Shown in pieces: positions 540-3,172 of a stretch of DNA of 64,000 nucleotides. Made by a program: the position numbers and the translations under genes. Numbering within the stretch: position 1 is the first letter of the stretch; each line of letters starts with the position of its first letter. This DNA comes from Campylobacterota bacterium (GTDB lineage: Bacteria > Campylobacterota > Campylobacteria > Campylobacterales > Nitratiruptoraceae), in the NCBI GenBank assembly GCA_013153715.1, contig JAADDW010000019.1, positions 1 to 64,000 of the forward strand, read 5' to 3'. Below the pieces are notes generated by a model, which saw only the letters and a list, made by a program, of their open reading frames with translations, made no database searches and was not told the origin of the DNA.

Positions 540-1454
540 ATGATCCCTGCCATCATCTGGGGTATCAGCATTGCAGGCGGAGCCTACGGAGTGAAGAGGG
601 GACTTGATGCAAAAGAGAAATATAATGAAATCAAGAAGATAATAGAGAGAATTAAGAAGGAGGGAAAAAATCTTGAGGAAAAACTGTGCTCTACCAACGA
701 GGAACTCGAATCCCTCAACCAATTGAAACGGGAGCTCGCAGAGGGTACTCTCAAGAGGGCGATCAAATATCTCGAAAACCACAATCAGCTCTCCTATCTT
801 CGACAGCACCTCTCCAATACAGGCCAAAAGGAAAATTTACCTACAAAAGATTTTACCTCAAAATCTGCCGCCGCCACCATCACCTCCATACTTCAAGGAA
901 CTATGAAGGGAGTCGCATCACGGCAGATGGCTATGTATATTGCCAAACAGATAGGAGTGGCCAGCACAGGGACCGCCATTAAAACTCTTAGTGGAGCGGC
1001 GGCCGAGAGGGCGGCTCTCTCATGGCTTGGAGGAGGCGCCTTGGAGGCCGGGGGAGGGGGATTGGCCCTTGGAACCACCCTCTTGAGCGGTTTAAGTCTA
1101 GGAGTTGGTATCCTCTTCACAGGAATCTCTCTCGATAACAAGATGGCCCAAGAGTTGGAGAAGATGATCAGACAGGAGCGGGAGATCATTGGGAAGTACA
1201 AGAGCAAGGAACGAGAGCTCGACACTATAGTGGAGAAGAGCCATCTTTTGAAACAGAAGCTGAACATCGTGGCTAGCCGATTGGAAAGGGAGTTACGACT
1301 TTGGTATTTCTTTAAATCCAACCGTAGGGAGATCATCGGAACCCTTGCCGCGACACTCCTACAGCTGGTCAATCTTGATGTTATAGAGAATGGAGAGATT
1401 AATTGGAGCTTCGATCTGGAGCTAGAGTCAATCATGGAACCGATAGAGATATAA
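540..1454 (+). CDS. predicted membrane-associated protein with coiled coils flanking a G/A-rich hydrophobic segment
   Basis: ORF with SD AGGAGGAG; long charged helices flank STGTAIKTLSGAAAERAALSWLGGGALEAGGGGLALGTTLLSGLSLGVGILF. Confidence 0.75.
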   Translation: MIPAIIWGISIAGGAYGVKRGLDAKEKYNEIKKIIERIKKEGKNLEEKLCSTNEELESLNQLKRELAEGTLKRAIKYLENHNQLSYLRQHLSNTGQKENLPTKDFTSKSAAATITSILQGTMKGVASRQMAMYIAKQIGVASTGTAIKTLSGAAAERAALSWLGGGALEAGGGGLALGTTLLSGLSLGVGILFTGISLDNKMAQELEKMIRQEREIIGKYKSKERELDTIVEKSHLLKQKLNIVASRLERELRLWYFFKSNRREIIGTLAATLLQLVNLDVIENGEINWSFDLELESIMEPIEI

Positions 1455-1476
1455 CAAAGAGATTAAGGAGGAAGCT

Positions 1477-1818
1477 ATGGGAATGGATAAGAAAAATAAT
1501 CTCCCCTCAGTTGTTAAGGGAGATCTCGAAATCTCTGTCTCTGGAAAAGAGAGTAGGCCTACGGTGCCTATAGATCCTCTAGTAGACCTCATCAGAGTTC
1601 TCAAAGAGGGAGAGGTTCTCAAAGAACGGTTGAAAAATGAACGGCTCGCCCTCAGGCAAGCCCATAAACGGTGGAAGTCTGAAGCAAAAGCCATCAAAGA
1701 GTCCTTTAAAAAGGATCACCGCAAACTGGACGATCTAGAGAAAGGATTGGACTATATGATGAAAGAGGGAGACAAGGAGAATGTCATGAAAATTCTTGAT
1801 CTTATTGCAAAACTGTAA
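1477..1818 (+). CDS. small charged helical protein, partner of the flanking genes
   Basis: ORF tightly spaced (22 bp) after the upstream gene, SD aaggagg; Lys/Glu-rich helical composition. Confidence 0.7.
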   Translation: MGMDKKNNLPSVVKGDLEISVSGKESRPTVPIDPLVDLIRVLKEGEVLKERLKNERLALRQAHKRWKSEAKAIKESFKKDHRKLDDLEKGLDYMMKEGDKENVMKILDLIAKL

Positions 1819-1828
1819 CGGAGAAAAA

Positions 1829-3172
1829 ATGAGGAGAGGGGTCATCACAATTCTTGGAACAGTGGGTGGGAGGACAACAGATTGCCATAAACTCGACAAT
1901 CCACAAAAGGCTCTCTATCACTCACAGATTCCTAGAATTTCAGAAGAGGAGGAGGTCAATACCCTCCCCATTCTCATCAAAGCCTTTGGGAAGGAAGGCT
2001 ACGATATTATCTCACTCCATACCCCTTGTGCCCGCCAGATTCAAGAGGAGATCATCGCCACCCATGAGGACCAGCAGGTCCGCTCTTATACAATCTCCAA
2101 GGAATGGGAGATCAATGATAGGGACTTTGATGGAACTTTTTCCAAAATCTATGAAATTATGGTAGGCTATGACCGGATTGTCATCGATGTCTCCCATGGT
2201 TTCCGCCACCTTCCCATTCTCATGATAGTCGATACCCTCATTCAATCCAGTATCGACATAACAAAAATCGAACATATTCTCTTCGCAAAGGAGACCATCC
2301 CCCGCCAGGAGTATGAGATCATTGATCTCAAGCGCTATATCGATCTCGCCAATTTCTCCTACGCCATCGCCTCCTTCACGAAGAACTACACCACTCTGGC
2401 AACAATTCGGGTCTCAGATCGGCTCCTCCAAAGTTTTCTCGACACCCTTGCCCAATTTTCCCACCATATCCTTGCCAACTCCTTTGATGCCCTCCTCAAA
2501 GACCGTCCCAACGACCGACCATCTATTGTCACCCAACTCCTCCAAGAGATTGAGAAGATCACCGAAGGGGAAGAAGGGGTCTTCATAAGAAATCTCTCCT
2601 CCATCTTGGAGGAGATCAGGAAACATCTGCGTTACATCCAATCCCTCCAAGAGAAGCTCTACCCCTACGAACGGCTCTACTATCTCGCCAGACTTCTCCA
2701 CGGGCGGGGTTACTACCTCAACGCCATTACACTTCTCAGTGAAGCGGTTGGTGCCTGGTGTAGCTACCGCCTCCGAGAGACCTCAGAGGAAGTGAAAAAG
2801 CTGATCAGAGAGTATGAGCGCCAAGCCTATGAAGAAAAGGATGCCTATTACAAACGGTTTTCTATCTATACTCTCTACAACCAGTCAAAAAACTTTTGCC
2901 GTTATGGGAGCAATTTTAAGGGCCTCTATCTCTCCGTTGACAGAGATGAAGAGTGGAACATAAGGTCTGAAAAGATAACCGCTCTACTCAAGGAGCACTT
3001 CAACCAGAGAGAGTTTCCCTATGTCAACTTTCTCAAAAGGGTCGACAGACTCCGCAACAATCTCTCCCACGCCAATAGCTCTGAACGGCTGGAAGAGGTA
3101 GCCCAGGAGATTGGGAGTCTCCTCTCCGAATTCGATCAGATCCTCTATTCCATCTCAACACCCTCCGCCTGA
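1829..3172 (+). CDS. CRISPR-associated CARF-HEPN protein, Csx2/TM1812-like
   Basis: N-terminal CARF-like region with DVSHGFRHLPIL (D-[ST]-HGFR-LP motif of the TM1812/Csx2 family); C-terminal RNNLSH matches HEPN R-x4-H; start set at ATG 1829 after the upstream stop. Confidence 0.85.
   Translation: MRRGVITILGTVGGRTTDCHKLDNPQKALYHSQIPRISEEEEVNTLPILIKAFGKEGYDIISLHTPCARQIQEEIIATHEDQQVRSYTISKEWEINDRDFDGTFSKIYEIMVGYDRIVIDVSHGFRHLPILMIVDTLIQSSIDITKIEHILFAKETIPRQEYEIIDLKRYIDLANFSYAIASFTKNYTTLATIRVSDRLLQSFLDTLAQFSHHILANSFDALLKDRPNDRPSIVTQLLQEIEKITEGEEGVFIRNLSSILEEIRKHLRYIQSLQEKLYPYERLYYLARLLHGRGYYLNAITLLSEAVGAWCSYRLRETSEEVKKLIREYERQAYEEKDAYYKRFSIYTLYNQSKNFCRYGSNFKGLYLSVDRDEEWNIRSEKITALLKEHFNQREFPYVNFLKRVDRLRNNLSHANSSERLEEVAQEIGSLLSEFDQILYSISTPSA

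What the first reader, a model, noticed from the sequence alone, without database searches (positions are those of the whole stretch)
540..3172. Candidate CARF-HEPN-linked membrane effector operon beside the CRISPR locus
Seen: three tightly packed co-directional genes: a protein with coiled coils flanking a G/A-rich hydrophobic segment, a 113-aa charged helical protein, and a Csx2/TM1812-like CARF protein with a C-terminal RNNLSH (HEPN R-x4-H). Known: CARF-HEPN proteins are cyclic-oligoadenylate-activated RNases of type III CRISPR systems. Inference: the first two genes may form a membrane-acting toxin/regulator pair controlled by the CARF-HEPN protein, which would be an uncharacterised type III ancillary configuration.
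Basis: partly seen in the sequence, partly recalled or inferred. Interest (0 to 1): 0.8.

Follow-up and report, generated by a model that had tools for sequence, protein, structure and literature searches.

The report
Orphan CARF-HEPN RNase beside defence-type pair
Three packed genes near a CRISPR array encode a normal-looking Csx1-type antiviral RNase and a divergent member of a widespread candidate phage-defence membrane protein family with a small partner; no other genome examined combines them, so this looks like a one-off pairing of two known kinds of defence parts rather than a conserved new system.

Summary
The three genes are real: 540-1454, 1477-1818 and 1829-3172, each with a good ribosome-binding site and gaps of 22 and 10 bp. 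Gene 3 is an intact Csx1/Csm6-type CARF-HEPN protein by PADLOC, motif conservation and a confident model matching solved Csx1/Csm6. Gene 1 is a deep, divergent member of the PADLOC candidate-defence family PDC-M09A: two long helices around a glycine-rich hydrophobic centre. That family occurs in 94 of 397 Campylobacterota genomes, on proteobacterial plasmids and in prophages. It normally sits beside a partner of ~140 or ~500-600 aa and often a YkgJ protein, not beside CARF genes. The same genome carries a second, ordinary copy with partner. Gene 2 fills the partner position but has no detectable relative. Among 51 distinct gene-1-family and 75 distinct CARF-family proteins collected, only this window has both. 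The assembly has no Cas10 or RAMP match, although 22-24 of 28 CARF-carrying genomes of the order have Cas10; it does have a complete type I-B system. The CARF-HEPN reading is supported. The idea that it controls the pair as a type III ancillary configuration is not.

The parts
540..1454 (+). Gene 1: 304-aa helical protein with a glycine-rich hydrophobic centre, divergent PDC-M09A family member
   Evidence: PADLOC PDC-M09A 7e-27; alignment and HMM with relatives; long branch, best identity 28%
959..1138 (+). Region coding the conserved STGTAI..LSG..A..A.L.WLGGGAL..GGGG core and hydrophobic stretch of gene 1 (about residues 140-200)
   Evidence: alignments A1 and A4, hydropathy
1477..1818 (+). 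Gene 2: 113-aa charged helical protein in the position of the family's usual partner; no detectable homologue
1829..3172 (+). Gene 3: 447-aa Csx1/Csm6-type CARF-HEPN protein
   Evidence: PADLOC CARF2--CARF_HEPN 1e-87; model pLDDT 87.0 with PDB matches to Csx1 and Csm6
2186..2209 (+). CARF motif D-V-S-H-G-F-R-H (residues 120-127 of gene 3)
3053..3070 (+). HEPN motif R-N-N-L-S-H (residues 409-414 of gene 3)
3262..3776 (-). Two cas2 genes (3262-3519 and 3519-3776), convergent with the operon
3773..4522 (-). 249-aa unidentified protein between cas2 and cas1; relative only in a Nautiliaceae MAG cas1-X-cas2-cas2 module (L129)
4618..5559 (-). cas1
5823..6081 (+). Short CRISPR array, repeat GTTGCATTCCATATCCGGCTATGAGCCATTGAGAC, last unit degenerate

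Best explanation
A co-transcribed defence cassette assembled from two separately evolved parts. Part one (gene 3) is a Csx1-type RNase: a cyclic oligoadenylate binds the CARF half of a dimer and switches on RNA cutting by the HEPN half. Part two (genes 1-2) is a divergent PDC-M09A-type unit. I infer that gene 1 is a helical hairpin protein whose glycine-rich centre inserts into or acts on the inner membrane, and that gene 2 is its small helical partner, which holds it inactive or helps it assemble. Both would slow or kill an infected cell, and sharing a promoter is their only apparent link. Shown: gene structure, CARF-HEPN fold and intact motifs, gene 1 family membership by sequence, lack of conserved co-occurrence, no Cas10 found in the assembly. 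Inferred: ligand, RNase activity, membrane action, role of gene 2, co-transcription.
For: Gene 3: PADLOC 1e-87, DxSHGFRH and RNxLxH conserved, confident model with Foldseek matches to Marinitoga Csx1-Crn2, S. islandicus Csx1 and T. thermophilus Csm6. Gene 1: PDC-M09A 7e-27. The family stands on its own in 94/397 genomes of the phylum, in cassettes with short or long partners and YkgJ, next to type I RM, TA/SIR2, Dnd-type and DUF3320/WYL genes on plasmids, and in two prophages. The own genome has an ordinary second copy with partner. Weak matches of family members to NheB, xenorhabdolysin A and SLATT models fit membrane action. Gaps of 22 and 10 bp support one transcript.
Against: n = 1: no other genome shows this arrangement, so even the operon's unity as a system is unproven. 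Gene 2 is not demonstrably related to known partners. Gene 1 could not be modelled well (pLDDT 45.8), and its tree placement is a long branch. The source of the CARF ligand is unknown because no Cas10 was found.
Confidence: 0.5

Rival explanations
1. True three-gene effector system: CARF-HEPN senses a cyclic oligoadenylate and, directly or by cutting the gene 2 mRNA or a partner complex, frees gene 1 to damage the membrane.
For: Tight co-directional packing. Some relatives have other membrane-protein genes right beside CARF-HEPN: a 264-aa protein in L111/L112, 225-aa proteins in L120/L125. Many type III loci carry several effectors (PMC11229360).
Against: Only one case among 51 gene-1-family and 75 CARF-family proteins collected. 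Gene 1's family normally works without CARF.
Confidence: 0.2
2. Chance neighbours at a defence-gene hot spot: two independent units that happen to share a transcript, with the CARF-HEPN gene a leftover of a lost type III locus.
For: No Cas10 or RAMP found in a 98% complete assembly, whereas 22-24 of 28 CARF-bearing genomes of the order have Cas10. CARF genes not linked to CRISPR-Cas exist in each CARF family (PMC4012209).
Against: CARF and HEPN motifs are intact and the ORF is full length, so it is not visibly decaying; gaps of 22 and 10 bp are unusually tight for unrelated units.
Confidence: 0.25
3. A type III locus exists but is missing from the 48-contig assembly, so gene 3 is an ordinary type III ancillary RNase. 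(This concerns the activator of gene 3 and can be true together with the best explanation.)
For: The type I-B operon sits alone on a 9-kb contig and CRISPR repeats lie at contig ends, so array-flanked loci break this assembly.
Against: 98.16% completeness; no partial Cas10 or RAMP match in any contig.
Confidence: 0.3

Closest known systems
Csx1/Csm6 CARF-HEPN ribonucleases (TM1812 / CARF2 clade)
   Same: CARF DxSHGFRH motif, HEPN RX4H, two-domain fold matching solved Csx1 and Csm6
   Different: No Cas10 or RAMP found in the assembly; sits behind a PDC-M09A-type gene instead of Csx20/WYL/RAMP genes as in relatives
PDC-M09 candidate defence system (PADLOC)
   Same: Gene 1 matches PDC-M09A, with the same helix / glycine-rich core / helix layout
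   Different: No PDC-M09B and no recognisable short partner; gene 2 has no detectable homologue; no YkgJ or TerB neighbour
Short-partner cassette (gene 1 + ~140 aa + YkgJ) on proteobacterial plasmids and, without YkgJ, in this genome (L045)
   Same: Gene order and size of partner
   Different: 28-32% identity at best; gene 1 falls outside that clade; gene 2 scores no better than the best shuffles
Type III membrane effectors (Cam1, Csx23, CorA)
   Same: Possible membrane action next to cOA signalling (PMC11229360)
   Different: Gene 1 has no CARF or other known ligand-binding domain hit

Membership tests
Csx1/Csm6 CARF-HEPN | CARF domain with conserved ligand-binding motifs | tested here: met
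   DVSHGFRH conserved; TIGR02549 DxTHG motif above cut-off; fold match
Csx1/Csm6 CARF-HEPN | HEPN R-X4-6-H catalytic motif | tested here: met
   RNNLSH; R, N, L, H conserved in relatives
Csx1/Csm6 CARF-HEPN | Overall fold | tested here: met
   pLDDT 87.0; Foldseek 2e-9 to Csx1-Crn2, 1e-6 to Csx1, 2e-5 to Csm6
Csx1/Csm6 CARF-HEPN | cOA-activated RNase activity | not testable with these tools
   biochemistry needed
Type III CRISPR ancillary gene | Cas10-containing effector in the genome | tested here: not met
   no Cas10 or RAMP match except GGDEF proteins; the assembly is not closed
PDC-M09 | A component | tested here: met
   PADLOC 7e-27 and 3e-24
PDC-M09 | B component | tested here: not met
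   gene 2 has no PADLOC match and no match to the short-partner HMM: 3.3 bits, 126 of 4753 shuffles as good
Alpha-pore-forming toxin-like fold | Helical bundle with hydrophobic hairpin | tested here: inconclusive
   sub-threshold NheB, xenorhabdolysin A and SLATT matches; gene 1 model poor
Conserved three-gene system | Recurrent co-occurrence of the three genes | tested here: not met
   only the window has both gene-1-family and CARF proteins

The most novel reading that the evidence does not exclude
A Cas10-independent cyclic-oligoadenylate response operon: a CARF-HEPN protein answers a nucleotide made by some other cyclase and works together with a PDC-M09A-type membrane protein and its small regulator.
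Probability: 0.07. Interest if true: 0.75.

Novelty: new variant of a known kind. Interest (0 to 1): 0.35.

Why it matters
If the operon works as a unit it would join a nucleotide-sensing RNase to a candidate-defence membrane protein family whose mechanism is unknown (no paper naming PDC-M09 was found), and would raise the question of what activates a CARF protein without Cas10. As it stands the main use is the clear gene-family picture: a widespread two-component cassette (PDC-M09A-type plus short or long partner, often with YkgJ) that recurs near defence genes and in prophages and deserves a direct test.

Tried and rejected
Genome-wide and viral scans with gene 1 alone found no relatives. 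An alignment scan of genome contigs with the family failed for lack of conserved stretches. PDB sequence search with the gene 1 family gave only coiled-coil chance hits, and with the CARF family none. Gene 2 as a homologue of the short partner: not supported statistically, although position and size agree. Its one phmmer hit outside itself (0.002), at window 61829-62896, has a sequence that looks like a DNA polymerase sliding clamp and was judged chance. Window gene 1 inside the short-partner clade: not supported; it groups with prophage PDC-M09A proteins, but on a very long branch. Cas10 palm matches in the own genome are GGDEF domains. Cas9: none. Relatives of the CARF protein in viral contigs: none; one on an Arcobacter plasmid inside a type III-A locus.

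Full report
Observation. Gaps are 22 and 10 bp, and no + strand terminator-like site lies between them. The CRISPR adaptation genes next door (two cas2, an unknown 249-aa gene, cas1) run on the other strand towards the operon, so they are not part of the same transcript.

Gene 3. PADLOC gives CARF2--CARF_HEPN at 1e-87 and Csx1/Csm6 at 7e-29. NCBIfam gives TM1812 at 7e-8 (below cut-off) and the DxTHG motif above cut-off. Alignment with Campylobacterota relatives shows T65, D120, G124, R126, N410 and H414 invariant in 32 sequences, R409 and L412 at 90% or more, and the block D-x-S/T-H-G/S-F-R-H in 11. AlphaFold2 with that alignment gives pLDDT 87.0 and pTM 0.81. Foldseek finds Marinitoga Csx1-Crn2 (2e-9), S. 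islandicus Csx1 (1e-6) and T. thermophilus Csm6 (2e-5). By sequence and fold this is a Csx1/Csm6-type protein; activity is not shown.

Gene 1. It matches PADLOC PDC-M09A at 7e-27. PDC stands for phage defence candidate (PMC11514479); no paper naming PDC-M09 was found. A single-protein search found a match in 9 of 200 genomes of the order, including a second copy in the same genome; a profile found the family in 94 of 397 genomes of the phylum. It also lies on plasmids of Vitreoscilla, Acinetobacter, Massilia, Duffyella and Azospirillum and in two viral contigs. The conserved core is STGTAI..LSG.AA..A.LAWLGGG...GG.GM..G, glycine-rich and hydrophobic, flanked by long predicted helices. Family members have weak sub-threshold matches to helical pore-forming toxin subunits and SLATT. 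That fits membrane insertion but does not prove it. The window copy is a deep branch (28% best identity in the tree; placement unsure).

Context of the gene 1 family. In most of the fully read loci it has a neighbouring partner, either ~130-145 aa (L045, L051, L160, L161, L162) or ~480-620 aa (most Campylobacterota loci and the two viral contigs), often with a YkgJ CxxCxxCC protein and a TerB-like protein. The large partner in L049 matches PDC-M09B. The short-partner HMM matches several large partners, weakly to clearly (best E 3e-6), so the two partner kinds may be related. Plasmid copies lie beside a type I restriction-modification system, TA and SIR2 genes, a DNA-phosphorothioation-associated methyltransferase, and DUF3320/WYL genes. 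Gene 2 of the window occupies the partner position, but its score against the short-partner profile is reached by 126 of 4753 shuffles, and it has no family or database match.

Co-occurrence. With profiles for both families run over every locus held (51 distinct gene-1-family and 75 distinct CARF-family C-termini), only the window carries both. This includes 52 CARF loci from a scan of 84,980 species genomes. CARF-HEPN relatives instead sit with RAMP genes, Cas10, Csx20-like proteins, WYL regulators, RT-Cas1 and sometimes other membrane proteins.

No type III effector in the assembly. Searches of the window's own genome (1.51 Mb, 48 contigs, 98.16% complete) with TIGR02578, PF22335, PF03787 and a Campylobacterota Cas10 profile found nothing but two GGDEF proteins. 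In the order, 22-24 of the 28 genomes with a CARF match also have a Cas10 match (the range reflects weak matches that may be GGDEF). The genome does hold a complete type I-B operon on a 9-kb contig. An array-flanked type III locus could still be missing from the assembly. CARF genes without CRISPR linkage are known (PMC4012209).

Judgement. The CARF-HEPN protein is ordinary in itself. The pair beside it belongs, at least for gene 1, to an independent candidate-defence family. Their operon-like joining is real but seen once. I favour a cassette of two separately evolved defence parts sharing a transcript, with functional coupling possible but unsupported.

Noticed in passing
L171 (own genome contig C48, 1-9081): Complete type I-B cas operon (cas6, cas8b, cas7, cas5, cas3, cas4, cas1, cas2) on a contig whose two ends are 208-bp inverted repeats, 93% complementary; could be a mobile unit or an assembly feature.
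   Followed up: partly
window 3262-5559 and L129:9104-11152: cas1 - unknown ~248-aa protein - cas2 - cas2 module without a neighbouring effector in the window, shared with a Nautiliaceae MAG; the ~248-aa protein has no family match.
   Followed up: partly
L166:5629-7996 and L167:3105-5416: PDC-M09A-like gene plus a ~480-515-aa partner inserted among phage genes in two viral contigs (beside baseplate-type genes in L166), as if carried as a cargo defence cassette.
   Followed up: partly
L106:9937-10950, L132:10070-11059, L135:10209-11199: Three other CARF-HEPN loci have a nearby pair of small proteins, one with an N-terminal hydrophobic stretch (MLPF/MLPW/MWRL) and a charged helical tail; no significant similarity to window genes 1-2.
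   Followed up: partly
L111, L112, L115, L060 (directly or nearly upstream of the CARF gene); L120, L125 (directly downstream); L110: Predicted membrane proteins (~250-264 aa, and ~225 aa) recur beside CARF-HEPN genes and may be type III membrane partners.
   Followed up: no
L158:1-200 and window 5660-5858: Near-identical array leader sequence at the start of contig C8 and before the window array; the same repeat also occurs at the end of contig C3 and at C42:22727, so arrays break the assembly.
   Followed up: partly
L176-L183: In the window's own genus and family a distant gene-1-like coiled-coil protein sits in housekeeping surroundings (beside a TypA/BipA-like GTPase in several genomes) rather than in a defence setting.
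   Followed up: no
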